Shown one piece after another: positions 31,528 to 42,854 of a stretch of 64,000 nt of DNA. The position numbers and the translations under genes were made by a program. This DNA comes from an uncultured Eubacteriales bacterium. Lineage in GTDB: Bacteria > Bacillota > Clostridia > Christensenellales > Aristaeellaceae. Position 1 is the stretch's first letter. Each line of letters begins with the position of its first letter. The notes below the pieces were generated by a model. The model saw only the letters and a list, made by a program, of their open reading frames with translations, was not told where the DNA came from and searched no databases. The stretch covers positions 558,001 to 622,000 of the forward strand of contig OMZY01000001.1 of the NCBI GenBank assembly GCA_900315675.1, written 5' to 3'.

Positions 31528-32556
31528 TTGGTCTATTCGTTTGAGCTGATCAAACATGCAAATATACGCTATCGTGACAGTCTTGTTGTGCTATCTCGTT
31601 GTGAACTTTTTGCCATGCTCAGCTCCCTTGGCGTCACTGCTGAAATCCGGGAGGAAACCTTAGGCGGATCCCGTTTCCTTACAGTTGAATGCAGGGATCT
31701 GAATGAATCAGAAATTGCTTTTCTTTCCGGCCACAGTTCTTTTTGTTTTATGGCGGAAAACAGGAATGGGTTACTTCGTCCCCTTCCCGTCTCTTTTGCC
31801 GGGTATCTGCCGGAGGATCTTCCGGAAGTTCTGAAATATAAGGGGAAAACAAGCGCTCCTTTTATGCGCATGATGATTAATACGGCTGTTTCCCTTTCGT
31901 CTTTCAGCCATATGGATACGCCGCTGGTCTTTTTTGATCCGGTCTGCGGCAAAGGAACGGGCTGTTTTTGTGCTGTTACAGCCGGTATGAATGCTGTGGG
32001 ACTGGATCTGGACCGGAAAGATATCCGGGAGGCTTCCGATTACTTCTCCCGTTACCTGAAACTTCACAAGCTCAAGCATGAACTGCACGACAGGTCGGAA
32101 ACCGCCTCCGGTCATTCCCTTCCTGTCACGGATTTTGTCTTTGCTGATACAAAGGATCATTTCCGTTCAGGTGATTGCCGCACTCTCAGTTTTGCCTGTG
32201 CGGACACGATGGATGCCCCCGCCCTTTTCCGGAAGAGGAAAGCCCATATTATCGCCGCGGATCTTCCCTACGGGGTTCAGCACGCGCCCCAGGCCGGCAG
32301 CCGTCCTGATTCCCTGCAGCGTTTTCTCCGGCGTGTCCTGCCGGTCTGGAAGAAAGTCCTTGCACCCGGCGGCGTAATCGCCCTGAGTTTCAATACGCTC
32401 ACCCTTCCCGCTGCGGATGTCAGAGAAGCCCTTGTCCATGCCGGATTCAGGCTTCCTGTAAACGATATATTCTCAGGCCTGAAACATGATGTTGAACAGG
32501 CTGTTATACGTGATCTTGTTTTTGCTTTTAATTCAGAGGAGGAATCTGTTTTATGA
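31528..32556 (+). CDS. Putative RNA methyltransferase (TRM11/UPF0020-like, no THUMP domain)
   Basis: The C-terminal part of this 342-residue protein is a Rossmann methyltransferase. SAM motif I appears as FFDPVCGKGTGCFCA (about 135-150), followed by VGLDLDRKDI, and the catalytic motif reads ADLPYG where guanine-N2 methylases of the TRM11/TrmN family have DPPYG. Then come VLAPGGVIALSFNTL and a final beta-strand region. The N-terminal 110 residues replace the THUMP domain and have no recognised fold. The target is probably tRNA or rRNA guanine, by analogy. The start is TTG 31528 with AGAGG seven bases upstream. Its TGA overlaps the ATG of rho (ATGA), so it is coupled to rho. Confidence 0.75.
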   Translation: MVYSFELIKHANIRYRDSLVVLSRCELFAMLSSLGVTAEIREETLGGSRFLTVECRDLNESEIAFLSGHSSFCFMAENRNGLLRPLPVSFAGYLPEDLPEVLKYKGKTSAPFMRMMINTAVSLSSFSHMDTPLVFFDPVCGKGTGCFCAVTAGMNAVGLDLDRKDIREASDYFSRYLKLHKLKHELHDRSETASGHSLPVTDFVFADTKDHFRSGDCRTLSFACADTMDAPALFRKRKAHIIAADLPYGVQHAPQAGSRPDSLQRFLRRVLPVWKKVLAPGGVIALSFNTLTLPAADVREALVHAGFRLPVNDIFSGLKHDVEQAVIRDLVFAFNSEEESVL

Positions 32557-34310
32557 CTTTCAGCGAACTCAATGGCATGACCGTTCTGCAGCTGCGTAAA
32601 CTGGCCCGTGAAAATTCAGTGGTTCTTGGCGCCGGTATCGATAAGGCTGGTATTATTGAAAAGCTTCTGTCTGTACTGTCCGGTGATACGGAAACTGCCT
32701 CCAATACCAATACCGTGGCTGAAGAGGCTTCCCAGTCTGAACCCAAATATCAGGCTGCCTGGCATAATACGGATACTCCGCGTTACAATGTGCGTCCCGC
32801 CTATCAGGCGCCCGGATCCGCTTCCCGTCCGGCCTGGCAGAATACCAGTCCCTCCGGTCAGCACCTTCCCCATGATCAGGCGCATGTACAGCCTATGCGT
32901 CCGGGCGGATTCACCCCCCGTTTCGGACCTGCCGCTTCTGTTCAGCCCGCACCCGCTGCCCCTTCCCAGGCGGCGGAAACCGCTGAAGTCCCTCATCCGC
33001 CTGTCGTTTCTCCTCTGCCGGAAAAACGCATCAGCATTGGTTCAGAAACCGGCTTCGGACCCCGTTCTTTCGGTCCCAACGCAGTACCTCATACCCGTCC
33101 GGCGGATACCTTCACTCCCTTCCAGTCTCAGGAAACCGGTATTCAGGCCCCTTCCCTGGAGGAGCTGCTTGCTTCCGGTGATTATGAAGAAGGCGGCGGC
33201 ATTCTGGAGCTGCATCCGGATGGTTACGGTTTCCTTCGCAATGCCTCCTTCCAGCCTTCCACAAAGGATATTTATGTCTCCATGGCGCAGATCCGCCGTT
33301 TCGGCCTGCGTACCGGGGATATGATCAAGGGAAAAGTCAGGCCTCAGCGTGAAGGCGACAAATATGCTGCCCTTCTGTACATCTCCAGCGTGAACGACGT
33401 ACCGGAAGAAGAAGCTTTCAACCGTCCGGCTTTTGATGAACTGACGCCCGTCTATCCCAGCCGCCGGATCTCTCTGGAGAGCAGCGACGGCCGTTCCTTC
33501 CCGGATATGCGGCTGATCGATCTGATCGCGCCCCTGGGCTTCGGCCAGCGGGGCCTCATGCTCTGTCCCCCGCAGACCGGTAAGGCTGAAATCATGCAGC
33601 ATTTCGCGAAAGTTGTCTGTGAAAACTATCCTGACGTTAACGTACTCATGCTGTTGATTGACGTTACTCCGGAAGATGCCACCATGGTCCGCGAAACGGT
33701 ACCCTGTACGGTGCTCGCTTCCACCTTTGACCAGACGCCCGAGGCTCATCTCCGCCTGTCTGAAATTGTCCTGGAACGGGCGATGCGTCTCGTGGAGCAG
33801 AAAAAGGACGTTGTCCTGATTGTGGACAGTCTCACCCGTCTGGCAAAAATCTATACCACCGCCGCGGCCCAGCAGGGACGCAGTCTCCCGGGTATGGTGA
33901 ATCCCTCCAGTCTTTTCCGCGCCAAACGTCTTTTCGGCGCAGCCCGTGCCTGCAAGGAAGGCGGCAGTCTGACGGTTCTTGCTGCCATGGATATTTCCAC
34001 CGGTTCCAAGGTGGATGATTCCGTTGTGGAGGAATTCAAAGGCACAGCCAATATGGAGCTTACGCTTGACCAGAATGTTGCCCGTGCCGGCGTTACCCCT
34101 TCTCTGAATCTGCAGCAGAGTTTTACGAAAAACGCTGATATCCTGCTGGATAACAAACAGAAGGAAGGCCTTTCCCTCATCAGAACACTGCTGGGCAGCA
34201 CTTCCTCCTCTGTCGCCATTCCCCAGCTGGAATCCATGATGGAAAAAACAGATACCAATGAAGCGCTTCTTCTGAAGATGAAGGACTGGTTTGCACTGAT
34301 GAATCGGTAA
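32553..34310 (+). CDS. rho: Transcription termination factor Rho, with altered ATPase motifs
   Basis: This 585-residue Rho homologue is longer than E. coli Rho (419) because of a Pro/Gln-rich linker (about 50-205) between the Rho_N domain (1-45) and the cold-shock RNA-binding domain (about 208-280, GYGFLR). The RecA-like core (about 290-560) keeps the Walker B Asp425 (VLIVDSLTRL), KRLFGAAR and EEFKGTANMEL. However, the P-loop is PPQTGKA: Lys344 is kept, but the usual Thr after it is Ala345 and the usual PPKAGK lysine is Gln. The DERPEE motif carrying the catalytic Glu is DVTPED (Val371), and two arginines of the SRK and NRSGTR segments are Gln507 and Gln522. By comparison with E. coli Rho from memory, ATP hydrolysis should be impaired. 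The gene overlaps the upstream methyltransferase by four bases. Confidence 0.9.
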   Translation: MTFSELNGMTVLQLRKLARENSVVLGAGIDKAGIIEKLLSVLSGDTETASNTNTVAEEASQSEPKYQAAWHNTDTPRYNVRPAYQAPGSASRPAWQNTSPSGQHLPHDQAHVQPMRPGGFTPRFGPAASVQPAPAAPSQAAETAEVPHPPVVSPLPEKRISIGSETGFGPRSFGPNAVPHTRPADTFTPFQSQETGIQAPSLEELLASGDYEEGGGILELHPDGYGFLRNASFQPSTKDIYVSMAQIRRFGLRTGDMIKGKVRPQREGDKYAALLYISSVNDVPEEEAFNRPAFDELTPVYPSRRISLESSDGRSFPDMRLIDLIAPLGFGQRGLMLCPPQTGKAEIMQHFAKVVCENYPDVNVLMLLIDVTPEDATMVRETVPCTVLASTFDQTPEAHLRLSEIVLERAMRLVEQKKDVVLIVDSLTRLAKIYTTAAAQQGRSLPGMVNPSSLFRAKRLFGAARACKEGGSLTVLAAMDISTGSKVDDSVVEEFKGTANMELTLDQNVARAGVTPSLNLQQSFTKNADILLDNKQKEGLSLIRTLLGSTSSSVAIPQLESMMEKTDTNEALLLKMKDWFALMNR

Positions 34311-34323
34311 TCAGGAGGTATCT

Positions 34324-35937
34324 ATGGATTCTGTATATGTTGTAGGCCATAAAAATCCGGATACGGATTCCATCGTATCCGCCATGGCTTACGCCGCTCT
34401 TCAGAACGCCCTCGGCGGAAATCAGTATATTCCCGCCCGCTGCGGTCATCTGAATACGGAAACCTCTTTCCTGCTGGACAGGTTCGGTTTCCAGCCCCCT
34501 CTCTATCTCCGCACCGTACGCACTCAGGTTGCCGATATTGATTATGATACCCCGCCCATGGTCGGCGCCGGCGTCCCGGTTTCGCATGCCTGGAAAGTCC
34601 TGCACAAGGAGGATAACAGCGTTTCCGCCCTTCCCATCATCGAGGAGGATGGACGTCTTTTTGGCCTGATCACGGCCGGCGGCATGGCTGAAAATGACAT
34701 GGATTCCGTCAATGATCCATGTGTCACCTCCATCCCCGTCTTTAACCTGCTCAGTGCTCTGGAAGGCCATATTATCAATTCCGCGGAAGACGCCTTTGAT
34801 GAGATATCCGGTGAAGTGATCGTTGCCCTGCCGGGCTTTTCCTCCCGGATCCGGGAAGGCGCCGTTGTCCTTTGCGGCGATCAGAAGGATATGGCTGATC
34901 TGGCTCTGGAGAACAAGGCTTCCTGCCTCATCTTCTGCGGCACCTCCCTGGGTGAACAATACCGCGGGCTTTCCTCCTCTACCTGTCTGATTGTCTGTCC
35001 CTTTGATGCCTACCGCGCCTCAAGGCTGATTTTCCAGTCCATTCCCGTCGGACGTATCGCCTGCTCCACTAATCTGCATTATTTTCACCTGAACGACTAT
35101 CTGGACGATGTCCGGGAAATTGTGATCCAGAGCCGTTTCCGTACTTATCCCGTCCTGGATGATGAAGATAAGGTGATCGGCACTCTCTCCCGCTATCATC
35201 TCATTCGGCCCCGCCGGAAAAAGATCGTTCTCGTGGATCATAACGAAGTGGGGCAGGCCGTTTCCGGCCTGGATCAAGCGGAGATCATCGGTATCATTGA
35301 CCATCACCGTCTGGCGGATGTACAGACAGGCAATCCGGTCTTCATGCGGAATGAACCAGTAGGTTCCACTACTTCAATCATCGCTGCCATGTATCAGGAA
35401 CATGGATTGATGCCTTCTCCCAAAATGGCTGGGTTAATGGCTTCCGCCATTATCTCTGATACGGTAATGTTCAAGAGTCCAACCTGTACGGCCCATGACA
35501 AGGTTCTGGCCGAACGGCTGGCCCGTCATGCCGGCATTGACTGTGAGGAACTTGGCAAGGCAATGTTCTCCCGCGGCGTATCTGCCGATATGCCTGCCGA
35601 GGATCTTGTCCGTTATGATATGAAGGATTTCCATCTGGGTACTCATTCCCTGACCATTTCCCAGATTACCACCGTTGAATCCGATCCCTTCCTTGCGAAG
35701 AAGGAGGATTTCATCCGCTCACTGGAAAAAATCCGTAAAGACAAGCAGTATGATCTGGCCCTTCTGATGATTACCAATGTTCTGAAGGAAGGAACCGAAC
35801 TGCTGTACGCCGGAGACGCGGATGTTATCCGCAGCGCGTTCTCTGTGGATGATCTGAAGGGAAATCATGTGTTCCTGCCTCAGGTATTGTCCCGGAAAAA
35901 ACAGATCGTACCCTCGCTTTCACAGCTATGGGGATAA
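34324..35937 (+). CDS. Family II inorganic pyrophosphatase with CBS/DRTGG regulatory insert
   Basis: This Mn/Co-dependent DHH-family pyrophosphatase splits PPi to phosphate. The 537-residue protein has the N-terminal DHH start GHKNPDTDS (8-16), a regulatory insert of about 240 residues with two CBS-like halves around a DRTGG-like domain (about 70-300), and then the rest of the catalytic domain: LVDHNEVGQA, IGIIDHHR and SDTVMFKSPT. A C-terminal DHHA2 domain contains LALLMITNVLKEGTELL. CBS-type enzymes are regulated by adenine nucleotides and sometimes diadenosine polyphosphates; regulation here is inferred. AGGAGG precedes the ATG by seven bases; it follows rho by 13 bases. Confidence 0.93.
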   Translation: MDSVYVVGHKNPDTDSIVSAMAYAALQNALGGNQYIPARCGHLNTETSFLLDRFGFQPPLYLRTVRTQVADIDYDTPPMVGAGVPVSHAWKVLHKEDNSVSALPIIEEDGRLFGLITAGGMAENDMDSVNDPCVTSIPVFNLLSALEGHIINSAEDAFDEISGEVIVALPGFSSRIREGAVVLCGDQKDMADLALENKASCLIFCGTSLGEQYRGLSSSTCLIVCPFDAYRASRLIFQSIPVGRIACSTNLHYFHLNDYLDDVREIVIQSRFRTYPVLDDEDKVIGTLSRYHLIRPRRKKIVLVDHNEVGQAVSGLDQAEIIGIIDHHRLADVQTGNPVFMRNEPVGSTTSIIAAMYQEHGLMPSPKMAGLMASAIISDTVMFKSPTCTAHDKVLAERLARHAGIDCEELGKAMFSRGVSADMPAEDLVRYDMKDFHLGTHSLTISQITTVESDPFLAKKEDFIRSLEKIRKDKQYDLALLMITNVLKEGTELLYAGDADVIRSAFSVDDLKGNHVFLPQVLSRKKQIVPSLSQLWG

Positions 35938-35941
35938 AACA

Positions 35942-35970
35942 AGAACGGGGTCCGGGACCCCGTTCTTTTA
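35942..35970. terminator. Bidirectional intrinsic terminator
   Basis: Eleven-base perfect stem (35942-35952 with 35956-35966), CGG loop, TTTTA after it. It serves the pyrophosphatase gene on plus and abuts the stop codon of the SH3 gene on minus. Confidence 0.85.
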
Positions 35971-36933
35971 ATATTCCTCCAGATCGCTCACTCCGATGAT
36001 TGCGCCTGTCGCGTAATCAAGTCGGACTGTCTTTCCGCTTTCGTAGTTCACCTGTATATCATAGGGATTCAGCAGGATTTCGTATGGTCCGTATATCTCC
36101 GGATCGTCTATTTCAGACTCCCAGAGCACATATCCGTCACAGTTGAGGGCAATCGGTGCGGGCCCGTCCGTTCCGGCGATGTACATATTGCCGGTTTCCG
36201 TATCAACGGTGTGAACCGCTGCGTCCCCGAATGAACAGACATTTTCCATCAGGGACCAGACTTCAATTCCGTCCATCAGATCCAGCATGATCAGGCCGTA
36301 CTGCGCGTCATACACATATACCTGCGGTTCGTCCTCCGTACCGCCCATAAAGGCGCGGAGATTCTGATACTGTCCGGTTTGCTTGACGCCCTCTGTATAC
36401 CCCCAGATCGGCTGGTCGTCAATAAAGCATCCTACCCGGAGATATTCCCAGTTCGCGTCGCCTTCAGGAATAACTTCATAGGCAGCCAGCACAGCCACGT
36501 TGAATTCTTTCCAGTCGAGGGCAATGGTCCCGCCTCCGGTAATTTCCTCCCGGGACATAATCTTGTTGAACGCTCTTGTTTCAGCAGGCTCTGCCTCAGG
36601 TGCCGGTGTAAGATACTTTTTCAGGATATAACCTTCCATGCCGTCATATTCACAGCGGATATACAGGTTTGCCTGCTTTTTATACTTTCCGGCTGCGTAT
36701 TTCGCTACATTGTTGTTGCAGTAAAGCACAACGGAATCCAGCGGCACTTTTGCCAGCACCGTCGCTGTCTTGTCCGGGGCGTCCCGCAGGGAAACATAGT
36801 CCTTGCATTTAACCACGCGCATGGCGCCCAGGTAATACCGGTCTTTTTCCACGGTTTTCCGTTCTGCGTTAACAGTGCAGCAGGACAGGCAGAGAATCAG
36901 GAAAAGCAGAATGAAGGATACTGCCTTCTTCAT
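35968..36933 (-). CDS. Secreted SH3-domain protein, 321 aa
   Basis: The signal peptide MKKAVSFILLFLILCLSCCTVNA/E ends in a signal-peptidase-I site; the CC pair is not preceded by a proper lipobox. A bacterial SH3b domain follows (about 40-110: VVKCKDYVSLRDAPDKTATVLAKVP and GYILKKYL). The rest (about 125-321) is a beta-rich region with repeating units such as YVYDAQYGLIMLD and LNPYDIQVNYESGKTVRLD that may form a propeller-like fold; I do not recognise the family. It is probably envelope-associated. AGGAGG precedes the ATG. It is a single gene divergent from putP. Confidence 0.8.
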   Translation of the reverse strand: MKKAVSFILLFLILCLSCCTVNAERKTVEKDRYYLGAMRVVKCKDYVSLRDAPDKTATVLAKVPLDSVVLYCNNNVAKYAAGKYKKQANLYIRCEYDGMEGYILKKYLTPAPEAEPAETRAFNKIMSREEITGGGTIALDWKEFNVAVLAAYEVIPEGDANWEYLRVGCFIDDQPIWGYTEGVKQTGQYQNLRAFMGGTEDEPQVYVYDAQYGLIMLDLMDGIEVWSLMENVCSFGDAAVHTVDTETGNMYIAGTDGPAPIALNCDGYVLWESEIDDPEIYGPYEILLNPYDIQVNYESGKTVRLDYATGAIIGVSDLEEY

Positions 36934-37033
36934 CGCTGTTCCTCCTCTTCAACATGATTTATTATTTTACTCCTATTCCCATCAATCCACAAGCAAGAAC
37001 AGCAAAAATACTGTATATATCGTTTGATATGGA

Positions 37034-37039
37034 TATAAT
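37034..37039 (+). promoter_or_regulatory. Putative -10 element for putP
   Basis: Perfect TATAAT without a clear -35 (CTGTAT at the right distance). The leader then holds a six-base hairpin GCGGCG/CGCCGC at 37059-37076 just before the ribosome binding site AGGAAAG. Confidence 0.4.
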
Positions 37040-37092
37040 AATTTACAGTATACAGTATGCGGCGTGTTTGCGCCGCAGGAAAGTGGTGTTTT

Positions 37093-38598
37093 ATGAATAC
37101 AGAACTGGTTGTCTTCATCGTCTATCTCTGTTTCATGGTGGGCATTGGAATCTATTTCTTCGTGAAAGACCGCGGCAGCGGTGAAAAGGAATACTTCCTC
37201 GGCGGCCGAAAGATGGGCCCCTGGGTTTCCGCTCTTTCTGCCGGCGCTTCCGACATGAGCGCCTGGGTGCTGATGGGCCTCCCCGCTTCCATCTATGCTG
37301 CCGGTATCGGTCAGGCATGGATCGCAATTGGCCTGGCTGTCGGTTATGCCCTCAGCTGGATTTTCGAAGCGCCCCGTCTGCGCCGTTTCTCCATCGCGGC
37401 GGACGATTCCATTACCCTTCCCCAGTATCTGACCAACCGGTTCAAATCCTCCAGCAAGGCTCTTCAAATCCTCTGTGCCATCATCTTCCTGATCGCCTAC
37501 ACCATCTACGCCGCTTCCAGCGTCAAAGCCTGCGGTACGCTTTTCCAGACTGTCTGCGGCAATATCTTTATCGCGGGCAATGACCTGCTGAACCAGCAGA
37601 TCTTCATGTATATTGCCGCTGCCATTATTATTGGCTACACGTTTATGGGCGGCTTCAGCGCCGTCTGCTGGACAGACTTCTTCCAGGGCCTGCTGATGCT
37701 TGGTGCCCTCCTCATTGCTCCTATCTTCGCCCTGGGGCTCATCAGCGGCGGACAGGGTCATATGACCATCGAAGCCCTGAGTCAGTCCAATCCTGATTAC
37801 TGGAACATGTTCCCGGACTGGAAAACTGTGGCTTCCGGCCTTGGCTGGGGTCTTGGTTACTTCGGCATGCCCCATATCATCATCCGCTTCATGTCCGTCC
37901 GCAGTGATAAGGACCTTCGCAAGAGCGCAAAGATCGGTATCACCTGGAATGTGCTGATCGTCCTCTTCTCTGTTGCGGCCGGCTGCATCGGTCATCTTTT
38001 CCTGGGAGAAGTTTCCGATTCGTCCACCGTTTTCATTCAGATGGTCCGGACGATCTTCCCCGCTGTGATTTCCGGTATCCTGCTTTCCGCCATCCTGGCG
38101 GCTGCCATGTCCACCGCGGATTCCCAGCTGCTCTGTGCCTCTTCTGCCTTTGCGTCTGATGTATATAAACCCGTGATCCGGAAAAACAAGTCAACAGATA
38201 AGGAAATGTTCTGGGTCGGGCGTTATGTTGTGCTGATCATTGCTGTGATCGCGGTTCTGATTGCTTCCAATCCCAACAGCCAGAGCATTATGGACCTTGT
38301 TTCCAATGCCTGGGGCATCTTCGGCGCAGCCTTCGGTCCGGCAATCCTGCTGAGCCTCTTCTGGAAGCGTTTCACCTTCTGGGGAGCTGTGGCCGGTATT
38401 GCCTCCGGTGCGGCTGTTGATATCGCCTGGCTGATCCTGGGTCAGCGGAATCCCGGCAGCATCTTCACGCTCTATGAGATCATTCCCGGCTTCGTTATCG
38501 GTCTCATCTTTGCCATCGTCGTTTCCCTGATCGACAAGGCGCCGAAAAAGGAAGTCGAAGATCTGTTCGATCTCGCAGTTTCCGACCAGATCAACTGA
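37093..38598 (+). CDS. putP: Sodium/proline symporter
   Basis: This solute:sodium symporter family member of 501 residues has about 13 membrane segments. The family motifs are YFLGGRKMGPWVSALSAGASDMSAW (in segments 2-3), GLGWGLGYFGMPHIIIRFM and AAAMSTADSQLL. These match PutP, which imports proline with Na+ as nutrient or osmolyte; pantothenate (PanF) or other SSS substrates are less likely. The ATG at 37093 is chosen because AGGAAAG lies upstream and the frame start at 37057 would lie within the leader hairpin. Confidence 0.93.
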   Translation: MNTELVVFIVYLCFMVGIGIYFFVKDRGSGEKEYFLGGRKMGPWVSALSAGASDMSAWVLMGLPASIYAAGIGQAWIAIGLAVGYALSWIFEAPRLRRFSIAADDSITLPQYLTNRFKSSSKALQILCAIIFLIAYTIYAASSVKACGTLFQTVCGNIFIAGNDLLNQQIFMYIAAAIIIGYTFMGGFSAVCWTDFFQGLLMLGALLIAPIFALGLISGGQGHMTIEALSQSNPDYWNMFPDWKTVASGLGWGLGYFGMPHIIIRFMSVRSDKDLRKSAKIGITWNVLIVLFSVAAGCIGHLFLGEVSDSSTVFIQMVRTIFPAVISGILLSAILAAAMSTADSQLLCASSAFASDVYKPVIRKNKSTDKEMFWVGRYVVLIIAVIAVLIASNPNSQSIMDLVSNAWGIFGAAFGPAILLSLFWKRFTFWGAVAGIASGAAVDIAWLILGQRNPGSIFTLYEIIPGFVIGLIFAIVVSLIDKAPKKEVEDLFDLAVSDQIN

Positions 38599-38647
38599 TA
38601 TTTTTCCGGTAAAACATCACCGGTCCGGCATAACGTCCATAGGAAAC

Positions 38648-38848
38648 TTATTCAATATTGAAGCGCTTCTTGAAGCGGTCAACACGTCCGCCCGTGTCTA
38701 CCAGCTTCTGTTTGCCGGTGTAGAAAGGATGGCACTTGGAACAAATATCCACCTTCATCTCTTTCTTGGTAGATCCGGTTTCAAAAGTTTCACCGCATAC
38801 GCAGCGAACCACGCACTTACCATACTGGGGATGAATATTTTCCTTCAT
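38648..38848 (-). CDS. rpmE: 50S ribosomal protein bL31 (zinc-binding form)
   Basis: The 66-residue protein begins [12 protein letters not shown] and carries four cysteines (C-V-V-R-C-V-C near residue 12-18 and [13 protein letters not shown]), so it is the zinc-containing C+ type rather than the zinc-starvation paralogue. It bridges the subunits near the central protuberance. The start at 38848 has AGAGGTG upstream. It faces putP convergently and shares a divergent control region with the gene at 38986. In many Firmicutes rpmE lies next to rho; here they are about 4 kb apart with putP and other genes between. Confidence 0.96.
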
Positions 38849-38898
38849 TGCTGTTTCACCTCTTTCGCGTATGCAATGGCGGTTAAACCGCAAGAAGT

Positions 38899-38927
38899 AT
38901 ATTAACATATTCGTGAGCCGTTTGCAA
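38899..38927 (-). promoter_or_regulatory. Promoter of rpmE
   Basis: Minus-strand TTGCAA (38927-38922) and TAATAT (38904-38899), spacer 17, about 50 bases before the start. Confidence 0.5.
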
Positions 38928-39857: not shown

Positions 39858-40946
39858 ATGACTACTGAACAGGAAAAGAATTTCGATGTCGGCGGTCAGG
39901 CCGTTATGGAAGGTGTCATGATGCGTTCCCCTTCCGCCACCGCCGTGACTGTCCGTCGTCCTGACGGCACCATGGTGACCAAGCTGACCCCTTTCGTTCC
40001 GCTGAAGGAAAAACACCCCTGGATGGGCAAACCCTTCATTCGCGGCATCATTAATATGGGTACCATGTTGTATTACGGCATGAACACCCTGGAAGATTCC
40101 ACAAAAATGCTCGGCATGCTCGATGAGGAACCTACCAAATTTGAAAAATGGCTTTCCCGCAAGCTTGGCAAGGGCGTAGATAAAATCGTAATGGCTTTTG
40201 CCATTATTCTGGCCGTTATACTGTCTGTCGTACTCTTTATTGCTGTTCCGGCCGGTGTGGAAAGTCTTCTCCGCAGTGCCGGGATGCCTACTGTCGGTTA
40301 TACGCTCATCAGCGGTCTGGTGAAAATCCTGATCCTGGTTGGCTATATGATTTTCTGCGGTTATGTGCCTGAAGTCCGCAGAACTTTCCAGTATCACGGT
40401 GCGGAGCATAAATCTGTTCACTGCCATGAATCCAGTCTTTCACTGACTCCCGGTAACGCCCAGACCTTTTCCCGTCTGCATCCTCGCTGCGGTACCGCTT
40501 TTCTCCTGATTGTTTTCTCCATCAGCATTCTTCTTTTCCTTGTGCTGAATGTGCTGGTGCCGATCAGCAATTTCTTCGTTCGCTTTCTTTTCCATCTGGC
40601 CATGCTGCCTGTTGTTGCCGGAATCAGTTATGAAGTCCTGATGGGCCTTGCACATTCCAACAGCAAAGCCGCCTGCATTCTTCGCTGGCCCGGGCTGCAG
40701 ATGCAGCGCCTGACTACGCGGGAACCGGATGAATCCATGCTGGAATGTGCCATTGTTTCTGTCAATGTCGTGCTGAACGGTTTCCCGGAGCATGTGAAAA
40801 AGACTCCTGAAGGCTGGGGAATCTTCACGGATTACCGTGAATCTGAACCCGGCTATGTTCCGCCGGCTGATGTTGATTCCGGCGCTGAGGAGGAAACAGA
40901 TCCGTCTGTGGAAACGGAAGAGAATGATTCAGGTGAAAATGCATGA
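39858..40946 (+). CDS. DUF1385 (YqhQ-like) membrane protein
   Basis: The 362-residue protein of the DUF1385 family has the N-terminal signature VGGQAVMEGVMMRSP, IRGIINMGTMLYYG and, after membrane segments (about 110-135 and 145-175), the conserved YHGAEHKSVHCHE. Further segments follow (about 215-265), then GLQMQRLTTREPDESMLECAI. The role is unknown; in Clostridia it is encoded before prmC and prfA, as here. A poor but acceptable AAAGGA precedes ATG 39858; the longer GTG frame from 39786 lacks a site. Its TGA overlaps the prmC start (ATGA). The C-terminus is acidic and low complexity (GAEEETDPSVETEEND). Confidence 0.9.
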   Translation: MTTEQEKNFDVGGQAVMEGVMMRSPSATAVTVRRPDGTMVTKLTPFVPLKEKHPWMGKPFIRGIINMGTMLYYGMNTLEDSTKMLGMLDEEPTKFEKWLSRKLGKGVDKIVMAFAIILAVILSVVLFIAVPAGVESLLRSAGMPTVGYTLISGLVKILILVGYMIFCGYVPEVRRTFQYHGAEHKSVHCHESSLSLTPGNAQTFSRLHPRCGTAFLLIVFSISILLFLVLNVLVPISNFFVRFLFHLAMLPVVAGISYEVLMGLAHSNSKAACILRWPGLQMQRLTTREPDESMLECAIVSVNVVLNGFPEHVKKTPEGWGIFTDYRESEPGYVPPADVDSGAEEETDPSVETEENDSGENA

Positions 40947-41779
40947 CCTGTCGTGAGCTGATCCGCCGTACCGCTGAACAGTTCAGCGCCGCCGGTATAC
41001 CGGACCCTGTCAATGACGCGGCTCTGCTGCTTTCTGATCTGACCGGTATTTCTCCGCTTTCCCTTCGTCTGGACGAGGATACAGTCCTGGATTACAGAGT
41101 GGTTGAGGCGTATCAGTCCTATGTTGAACAGCGTCTTCAGCGGATTCCCCTGCAGTATATTCTCGGGGAGGCGCCGTTTTTCGGTCGTCTTTTCCGGGTG
41201 GATTCAAGGGTATTGATTCCGCGTCCGGAAACCGAACTGCTCTGTGAATGGGCTCTGGAGGTTCTGCGCAATCATCCCCTCCCGCGGATTCTTGACCTGT
41301 GCTGCGGCAGCGGCTGTATCGGCATCACCCTGAAAGCGGAAAAACCGGATGCTTTTGTCACCTGTTCCGATCTGTCTCCTGACGCGCTGAGTCTTGCTTC
41401 TGAAAATGCCGCACGACTCGGCGTGGACGTGGCTTTCTGCCGTACCGATCTGCTCGACGGCTTCGCCACTTCGGGATTTGACCTGATTATCAGCAATCCG
41501 CCCTATATTCCGTCTGCTGTCTGCGCTGATCTGCAGCCGGAGGTGAAGCAGGAACCGCTCCTTGCGCTGGACGGCGGTCCGGATGGTCTTTCCCTGTACC
41601 GGAGAATTATTCCTGACGCGCTGACAACCCTGGTGCACGGCGGCATCCTGATGATGGAACTTGGCCAGGGTGAGGATGCCGGAGTCGAAGAACTGCTTCT
41701 GGAGCATTCTTTTATCAATGTGGAAATCCGGGAGGATCTGTCCGGAATCCGCAGAATGATCCTTGCCAGAAAACCGTAA
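40943..41779 (+). CDS. prmC: Release factor glutamine methyltransferase
   Basis: PrmC methylates the GGQ glutamine of release factors RF1 and RF2. The 278-residue protein has the N-terminal helical domain (1-75; RTAEQFSAAGIPDP, YILGEAPFFG), motif I LDLCCGSGCIGI and the catalytic NPPY at residues 185-188. It starts inside the last codons of the DUF1385 gene (ATGA overlap) and is followed by its substrate gene prfA after ten bases. Confidence 0.96.
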   Translation: MTCRELIRRTAEQFSAAGIPDPVNDAALLLSDLTGISPLSLRLDEDTVLDYRVVEAYQSYVEQRLQRIPLQYILGEAPFFGRLFRVDSRVLIPRPETELLCEWALEVLRNHPLPRILDLCCGSGCIGITLKAEKPDAFVTCSDLSPDALSLASENAARLGVDVAFCRTDLLDGFATSGFDLIISNPPYIPSAVCADLQPEVKQEPLLALDGGPDGLSLYRRIIPDALTTLVHGGILMMELGQGEDAGVEELLLEHSFINVEIREDLSGIRRMILARKP

Positions 41780-41789
41780 CGGAGGAATC

Positions 41790-42854
41790 ATGTTCACTAA
41801 ACTGGAAACTCTTTCAGACCGCTATCGCGAACTGTCCGAGGCGATTGCCCAGCCGGAGGTAATCCAGGATTATCCCCGCTATCAGGCCTGTCTGAAGGAA
41901 CGTTCCTCCCTTGAACCCCTTGTGGAGAAATACAGTCATTTCCAGCGCGTGGAACAGCAGATTCATGATAGTCGTGAACTGCTTTCTGATCCTGTCCTGG
42001 CCGCTGAAGCGGAAAAAGAGCTGGATGAACTGACGCAGACCCGTGAAAAACTGATTGAGGATCTGAAACTGCTGCTTGTTCCGCCGGATCCCCTGGACGA
42101 CCGGAATGTGATTATGGAAATCCGGGCCGGGGTCGGCGGTGAAGAGGCTGCCCTTTTTGCCGGGGATCTGATGCGTATGTATCTTCGTTATGCAGATCGC
42201 GGCGGACTGAATGCTTCCATCCTTTCGGTCAGCGATACAGATCTTGGAGGCGTGAATGAATGCCTTTTGCTTTTTTCCGGTTCCGGAGCCTTTGGCAGCC
42301 TGAAGTTTGAAAGCGGCGTTCATTGCGTCAAGCGTGTTCCCGTTACTGAAAGCAGCGGAAGAATACATACTTCAACAGTGACCGTTGCTGTTTTTCCTGA
42401 AGTGGAGGAAATTGAACTTACTGTCGATCCGTCTGATCTTCGGATAGATGTTTTTCATGCTTCCGGTCATGGCGGCCAGGGCGTCAATACTACGGACAGC
42501 GCCGTCCGGATCACCCATCTTCCCACCGGTCTGGTAGTCACCTGTCAGGATGAGCGCAGCCAGCTGGAAAACAAGGCCAAAGCCATGCGGGTACTTCGTT
42601 CCCGTCTCTTTGACCGCCTGAAGGAACAGCAGGTATCCGCCCGTGCGGAAGACCGTAAAAATCAGATCGGTTCCGGCGATCGAAGCGACCGGATCCGCAC
42701 CTATTATTTTAATCATGATTATGTGGTTGATCACCGTCTGAATCTGACGGTCAACCGTACCGCAAATGTCATAAACGGCGATCTTGCTCCGTTTATTGAC
42801 GCGCTCCGCCTGGCTGAAAAGACGGAGAAGATGAATCTTCTGAACCGGAAGTGA
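41790..42854 (+). CDS. prfA: Peptide chain release factor 1
   Basis: RF1 recognises UAA and UAG stop codons. The 354-residue protein has the GGQ loop (HASGHGGQGVNTTDSAVRI, G228-G229-Q230) and the stop-codon recognition region VKRVPVTESSGRIHTS, with PVT in the RF1 PxT position. The start at 41790 has GGAGG nine bases before it; an earlier ATG at 41763 overlaps prmC and has no site. It belongs to the DUF1385-prmC-prfA-tsaC operon. Confidence 0.97.
   Translation: MFTKLETLSDRYRELSEAIAQPEVIQDYPRYQACLKERSSLEPLVEKYSHFQRVEQQIHDSRELLSDPVLAAEAEKELDELTQTREKLIEDLKLLLVPPDPLDDRNVIMEIRAGVGGEEAALFAGDLMRMYLRYADRGGLNASILSVSDTDLGGVNECLLLFSGSGAFGSLKFESGVHCVKRVPVTESSGRIHTSTVTVAVFPEVEEIELTVDPSDLRIDVFHASGHGGQGVNTTDSAVRITHLPTGLVVTCQDERSQLENKAKAMRVLRSRLFDRLKEQQVSARAEDRKNQIGSGDRSDRIRTYYFNHDYVVDHRLNLTVNRTANVINGDLAPFIDALRLAEKTEKMNLLNRK

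What the first reader, a model, noticed from the sequence alone, without database searches (positions are those of the whole stretch)
32553..34310. Rho at its usual locus has lost several ATP-hydrolysis residues
Seen: a full-length Rho (Rho_N, RNA-binding domain, RecA core) in which the P-loop is PPQTGKA (Thr to Ala at 345, a second Lys to Gln), the DERPEE motif is DVTPED (catalytic Glu to Val371), and the arginines of the SRK and NRSGTR segments are Gln507 and Gln522. The Walker B Asp and the RNA-binding cold-shock motif remain. Known: in E. coli Rho these positions bind ATP-Mg, activate water and act as arginine finger/valve. Inference: this Rho may bind RNA and form rings but hydrolyse ATP poorly, or have been re-purposed. 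The surrounding genes (prmC, prfA, rpmE nearby) suggest it is the ancestral copy, not a side paralogue.
Basis: partly seen in the sequence, partly recalled or inferred. Interest (0 to 1): 0.75.

Follow-up and report, generated by a model that had tools for sequence, protein, structure and literature searches.

The report
Rho ring that lost its motor
The only copy of the transcription-stopping motor protein Rho in a genus of gut bacteria has lost the amino acids it needs to burn ATP, yet evolution still preserves the rest of it closely, so it probably does a different, motor-free job on RNA.

Summary
ORF 32553-34310 (+) is the only Rho found in its genome, at the ancestral locus. Against E. coli Rho it has lost the catalytic Glu (E211V), Arg valve (R212T), Arg finger (R366K), R353 (G), R347 (Q), K181 (Q), T185 (A) and adenine-stacking F355 (T). 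K184, Walker B D265 and the GYGFLR RNA motif remain.

All 36 congeners with a Rho lack E211, R212 and R353. Outside the order, 30 of 30 Rhos examined keep all ten catalytic positions. In the family, 31 of 47 genera examined are intact and 16 eroded, on an RpoB tree not as one clade.

In this genus the dead ATPase domain is under strong purifying selection (dN/dS 0.012-0.055 in 11 pairs; intact relatives 0.047-0.248). Sense-strand purine bias, a published footprint of Rho termination, is weaker in eroded-Rho genera (51.0% against 52.7%), but not significantly so under a full Brownian model.

Best reading: a hydrolysis-dead Rho kept as a non-motor RNA-binding ring. That function is inferred.

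The parts
32553..34310 (+). rho, 585 aa, Rho without its catalytic residues (window protein P0001)
   Evidence: NF006886 above its cut-off (415.4 vs 315), TIGR00767 below its cut-off (408.1 vs 509.45)
32688..33152 (+). residues 46-200, P/A/T/S/Q-rich linker
   Evidence: composition; dN/dS 0.054-0.175 in 11 pairs, the highest of the parts in most pairs
33195..33401 (+). Rho_RNA_bind (cold-shock-like) domain, residues 215-283
   Evidence: Pfam PF07497 E 1.9e-29
33222..33239 (+). GYGFLR primary RNA-site motif, residues 224-229, kept
   Evidence: 0 of 6 positions lost in half or more of the genus rows
33567..33587 (+). P-loop PPQTGKA, residues 339-345 (K181->Q, T185->A; K184 kept)
33660..33677 (+). 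DVTPED, residues 370-375 (catalytic E211->V, Arg valve R212->T)
   Evidence: roles from PMC8828861
33822..33839 (+). Walker B VDSLTR, residues 424-429, D265 and R269 kept
   Evidence: kept in 36 of 36 rows of the genus
33876..33902 (+). Q-loop stretch GRSLPGMVN, residues 442-450 (286 -> P and 288 -> M fixed in the genus)
33990..34010 (+). R-loop stretch DISTGSK, residues 480-486 (L320 -> D fixed in the genus)
34071..34073 (+). Q507 = R347
34089..34091 (+). G513 = R353, G in 36 of 36
34095..34097 (+). T515 = F355, the adenine-stacking position (Mtb F530)
   Evidence: role from PMC8828861
34128..34130 (+). K526 = R366, the Arg finger position (K in 34 of 36, R in 2)
31528..32556 (+). upstream methyltransferase-like gene overlapping the rho start by 4 nt; found upstream of rho in many family members
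   Evidence: 'methyltransferase-like' is my reading, it has no NCBIfam match at 1e-8
38648..38908 (-). rpmE (L31)
40943..41779 (+). prmC
41763..42854 (+). prfA

Best explanation
This is the vertically inherited, single Rho of its genome. It has lost ATP hydrolysis (probably all of it, and perhaps much of its nucleotide affinity) but keeps the Rho fold, the primary RNA-binding motif and most of its core under strong selection. Most likely it works as a non-motor RNA-binding ring or clamp, for example as an RNA chaperone or a passive factor on the elongation complex or mRNA, and no longer terminates transcription by motor action. Shown: residue loss across 36 species, no second Rho found, predicted fold, shared locus, strong purifying selection, erosion that is not one clade in the family. 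Inferred: loss of hydrolysis (from published mutants of other Rhos), ring formation, loss of termination, the present role.
Against: K184, D265 and R269 are kept in 36 of 36, T185 in 19 of 36, and K replaces the finger Arg in 34, so some nucleotide binding or slow hydrolysis is possible. The purine effect is not significant under a lambda=1 phylogenetic model (p 0.21; third positions p 0.08 and 0.42) and is weak in RpoB alone (p 0.09); g33, g9 and g15 are eroded but purine-rich. NusG is still encoded. The selection figures come from ten of the 36 genomes. No biochemical data exist.
Confidence: 0.66

Rival explanations
1. Still a working terminator: hydrolysis is catalysed by other residues (another acid, K526 as finger), with altered kinetics.
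For: K184, D265 and R269 invariant, K336 K in 35 of 36, and the whole ATPase domain strongly conserved; NusG present.
Against: The catalytic Glu, valve and finger, the gamma-phosphate Lys and the adenine-stacking Phe are changed together; single changes at the Glu or finger abolish or greatly reduce hydrolysis in other Rhos; purine bias, expected where Rho is active, is among the lowest in this genus.
Confidence: 0.2
2. Relaxed decay: Rho is no longer needed and is eroding on its way to loss.
For: The order holds many stages: remnants without a P-loop (g7, g35, parts of f14, f28, f32) and genomes without a match. Raised dN/dS in the ATPase part of g7 (0.256-0.405), one g12 pair (0.328) and one g25 pair (0.257).
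Against: In the window genus dN/dS is very low, frames are intact in 36 of 36 and substitutions at E211 are only V/M/L/I/A.
Confidence: 0.12
3. A hetero-hexamer partner or a second canonical Rho supplies catalysis.
For: Some relatives have two eroded Rhos in one bin (G259, G091).
Against: One Rho_RNA_bind match in each of 13 of 13 good genus genomes and in the own genome.
Confidence: 0.02

Closest known systems
Canonical bacterial Rho (E. coli, M. tuberculosis, T. maritima; TIGR00767 / NF006886)
   Same: Domain order, predicted fold, primary RNA-site motif, K184, Walker B Asp, genome locus shared with intact relatives
   Different: Catalytic Glu, Arg valve, Arg finger, R347, R353, K181, F355 and (in the window) T185 lost; Q-loop and R-loop stretches carry new fixed residues; below the TIGR00767 cut-off
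M. tuberculosis Rho (poor NTPase, PMC8828861, passages)
   Same: Divergent Rho with unusual activity and a large N-terminal insertion
   Different: MtbRho keeps the catalytic Glu, valve and finger and needs hydrolysis to terminate (PMC4499133, passages)
F1 ATP synthase alpha subunits (general knowledge, recalled)
   Same: RecA-type ring subunits that keep the P-loop but lost the catalytic Glu
   Different: Alpha works in a ring with catalytic beta; no catalytic partner Rho was found here
Rho-less Bacilli (PMC13323073)
   Same: Weaker sense-strand purine bias
   Different: Those lineages lost the gene; here it is retained and conserved

Membership tests
Rho termination factor (homologous family) | Rho RNA-binding domain PF07497 | tested here: met
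   E 1.9e-29, 101.7 bits vs cut-off 27
Rho termination factor (homologous family) | RecA-type ATPase fold as in solved Rho | tested here: met
Rho termination factor (homologous family) | Locus shared with canonical Rho of relatives | tested here: met
   prmA-rsmE-mtaB-hinT-MTase-rho, with or without rpmE-prmC-prfA, in intact and eroded genera; not seen in all regions (e.g. intact g8, g20, g29 and eroded g10, g16, g35, g7 show rho alone)
Functional Rho, NCBIfam TIGR00767 equivalog | Score above curated cut-off 509.45 | tested here: not met
   408.1 bits, (the NF006886 cut-off is met: 415.4 vs 315)
[quoted passage not shown]
   V371, T372, K526
Functional Rho motor | RNA-dependent ATP hydrolysis and termination | not testable with these tools
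   Needs purified protein
Rho2 short form (NF041509) | Score above cut-off 628 | tested here: not met
   309.6 bits

The most novel reading that the evidence does not exclude
A natural 'pseudo-Rho': the motor of a widespread termination factor was retired several times in one bacterial family. In one genus the motorless ring was then fixed again under selection at least as strong as on the working enzyme, with a changed RNA channel, as an ATP-independent RNA-binding factor in cells that no longer use Rho-dependent termination.
Probability: 0.5. Interest if true: 0.85.

Novelty: new variant of a known kind. Interest (0 to 1): 0.72.

Why it matters
Rho is textbook as an ATP-driven motor. A sole Rho that lacks the motor chemistry but is conserved would separate what Rho does by motor action from what it does by binding RNA and RNA polymerase. 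The family offers a natural series: intact, catalysis lost, P-loop lost, and (in the order) no match at all. That allows tests of how genomes adapt when Rho termination disappears, for example through purine bias and terminator use.

Tried and rejected
Assembly error or single-genome oddity: rejected (36 species). A second rho: none found. Common variation in active Rho: rejected outside the order, 30 of 30 intact (these are 30 of the 32 Rho-bearing genomes among the other 42 of that sample; G582 and G569 were not fetched). In a larger sample of 348 genomes of the phylum, my reading of the rows by eye finds only the own genome and two others (G569, G618) with a best E between 1e-25 and 1e-150. 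G569 is a Rho split over two overlapping frames; G618 was not looked at.

More intrinsic terminators in eroded-Rho genera: not significant overall, 81 of 233 gene ends against 74 of 258, Fisher p 0.17. The window genus alone is higher, 29 of 60, p 0.005, but that was picked after seeing the data and GC differs.

Purine bias went through several versions because the gene calling was improved. All point the same way: MWU p 0.0002, 0.0045, 0.0006; RpoB alone 0.09, its third positions 0.027. PGLS p 0.007 at the best lambda of 0 and 0.21 at lambda 1. The correlation with E211 state among the 15 eroded genera has p 0.08. The first RpoB tree contained wrong-strand ORFs and is discarded; one search replaces it. 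Two of the 30 genomes asked for had no RpoB match.

Rows dropped before counts: three fragment Rho rows (L082, L089, L091); six g7 rows and 22 of the 36 genus rows left out of the Rho tree; six regions with too little coding DNA; eroded genus g5 dropped out, and 24 of 31 intact genera were sampled. Motif rows are my selection, not all of the 241 matching family genomes. 'Intact' and 'eroded' were defined by these motif rows. The g15 motifs come from one genome (G184). In one search the 'RBD' figures with n=136 or 218 include linker and are not used. NG86 dS is affected by codon bias, which is stronger in the GC-rich intact genera, and the genus pairs share genomes. The comparison of 185 fixed core positions in the genus with 137 in the intact rows sets one genus against 31 and is not used as evidence.

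Literature searches for such a Rho in print. No description was seen in those listings; 'Christensenella' with 'termination factor Rho' gave 0 papers. Only open-licence papers are held, so absence from print is not shown.

Full report
WHAT IS THERE. The ORF 32553-34310 (+) encodes a 585-residue Rho. Pfam finds the Rho RNA-binding domain and the ATP-synt_ab core. NCBIfam puts it above the cut-off of one Rho equivalog model and below that of another. The best solved relatives are Rho chains. Upstream are prmA, rsmE, mtaB, a hinT-like gene and a methyltransferase-like gene (my reading) whose stop overlaps the rho start by 4 nt. Downstream are a Mn-dependent pyrophosphatase, putP, rpmE (minus strand), prmC, prfA and an L-threonylcarbamoyladenylate synthase. 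The own genome has one Rho_RNA_bind match and one NusG.

MAPPING. Aligned to E. coli Rho, the window protein has V371 for the catalytic Glu E211, T372 for the Arg valve R212, K526 for the Arg finger R366, G513 for R353, Q507 for R347, Q341 for K181, A345 for T185 and T515 for F355. The roles of E211, R212, the finger (Mtb R541) and the adenine-stacking Phe (Mtb F530) are taken from passages of PMC8828861, which also says these catalytic residues are highly conserved in divergent Rhos. Those of K181, T185, R353 and R366 come from passages of PMC11829017. I converted Mtb numbers to E. coli numbers by the constant offset of 175.

THE GENUS. Of 45 genomes of the genus, 36 have this protein without stops. 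Of the other nine, five have no match and four only an F1-like one; they are 54-85% complete. All 36 lack E211 (V 25, M 4, L 3, I 2, A 2), R212 (N 24, T 11, A 1) and R353 (G 36). R366 is K in 34 and R in 2. T185 varies (T 19, R 9, A 4, S 2, N 1, Q 1). K184 and D265 are kept in 36 of 36. Thirteen of 13 genomes at least 90% complete and at most 5% contaminated have exactly one Rho_RNA_bind match; two of them are single contigs. Seven named records resemble the genus (69-92% identity, L053-L059). They are metagenome-assembled 'Clostridia' or 'Clostridiales', three with ruminant gut sites in their titles (goat omasum, water buffalo rumen, sheep duodenum). The contig lengths of G007, G018 and G030 equal those of L054, L056 and L057. 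I suspect the genus is Aristaeella (recalled; the name and its two species are), but no call proves it.

CONTROL OUTSIDE THE ORDER. A sample of 43 genomes of the phylum, drawn evenly, gave 32 genomes other than the own one with a Rho. Loci came back for 30, from 30 families. All 30 keep K181, K184, T185, D210, E211, R212, D265, R347, R353 and R366; F355 is F in 29 and Y in 1. In a larger sample of 348, 242 have a match over the TIGR00767 cut-off; reading the rows by eye, almost all the others have no Rho-like score.

THE FAMILY. I examined 138 Rho rows: 36 of the genus, 97 from other genera of the family, E. coli and 4 from named contigs. Of the 133 family rows, 43 (31 genera) have all ten positions intact and 90 (16 genera, this one included) have lost at least one; no genus is in both groups, and 85 of the 90 have lost four or more. 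Among the eroded, g15 has lost 4 of 10, the window 7, g35 7 to 9. In g7 no P-loop can be recognised and the Walker B Asp is kept in 2 of 6. The GYGFLR primary RNA motif is kept in all groups tested except g7, with 1 of 6 positions lost in g44. Rho of intact and eroded genera often sits in the same gene order. Elsewhere in the order, more eroded Rhos, remnants and genomes without a match occur.

NUMBER OF ORIGINS. On an RpoB tree of 28 genomes the eroded genera do not form one clade (AU p 1.2e-29). Eroded g35 is sister to intact g20, g23 and g29. The fewest changes is two, which would need a regain; without regain three or four losses are needed, as one fork is open. The Rho tree with ten-odd active-site columns masked also shows two separate groups, with long branches in the most eroded rows.

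FOOTPRINT IN THE GENOME. Dierksheide et al. 2026 (PMC13323073; abstract and four sections read) report that Rho avoidance drives sense-strand purine bias in Bacilli and other runaway-transcription phyla and that rho-less Bacilli have a much weaker bias. With stretches of up to 20 kb (64 kb for the window), mostly round rho, I find 52.7% purine in genes of 24 intact genera and 51.0% in 15 eroded ones (MWU p 0.0006); the window genus has 49.7% over 168 genes. PGLS on the RpoB tree gives -1.6 points, p 0.007 at the best-fitting lambda of 0, but p 0.21 at lambda 1. Eroded g33, g9 and g15 are purine-rich, and intact g26, g6, g18 and g27 are purine-poor. I take this as consistent with lost Rho termination, not as proof. 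Intrinsic terminators showed no significant overall difference.

INTERPRETATION. In other Rhos single changes at these sites are enough. Passages of PMC5379054 say that E. coli D265N and R366A dramatically reduced hydrolysis without affecting RNA binding, and that M. tuberculosis Rho with D440N, R541A or E386A did not sustain growth. [quoted passage not shown] Taking all these losses together, ATP hydrolysis and motor-driven termination are unlikely, while RNA binding and ring formation are likely. Strong selection says the protein has a job. I infer a passive RNA-binding ring; which RNA and which partner are unknown.

NOVELTY. It is a member of the Rho family by homology, fold and locus, but it fails the catalytic definition of a Rho motor. 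In the searched open-access library I saw no report of it. I rate it a new variant of a known kind, of high interest because it is conserved, sole, and part of a natural series of losses.

Noticed in passing
g7 rows L083-L088; g35 rows L072, L073, L080, L081: Rhos of two other genera of the family have no recognisable P-loop and mostly no Walker B Asp, yet frames of 512-627 aa remain (one g7 match, L086, runs over a stop); g35 mostly keeps the RNA motif, g7 mostly does not.
   Followed up: partly
L273, L274, L278, L280-L284, L286, L288, L289: Other families of the order (f14, f28, f32) hold strongly eroded Rho remnants, and several small genomes of f28 have no Rho match at all.
   Followed up: partly
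L074 and L090 (G091); L048 and L106 (G259): Two eroded Rho genes in one genome bin; paralogues or contamination not resolved.
   Followed up: no
nine g1 rows among L028-L037: In nine rows of the genus the Walker A Thr is Arg (mostly GKR), an unusual P-loop.
   Followed up: no
window 34324-38908: In six of eight sampled congeners and the window a Mn-pyrophosphatase (with an SH3-like gene, and putP in five) lies between rho and rpmE; rpmE is on the opposite strand to rho in all eight. In most other genera with rpmE in the region it follows rho on the same strand.
   Followed up: partly
31528-32556: Methyltransferase-like gene without an NCBIfam match at 1e-8, overlapping the rho start codon by 4 nt and found upstream of rho in many relatives.
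   Followed up: no
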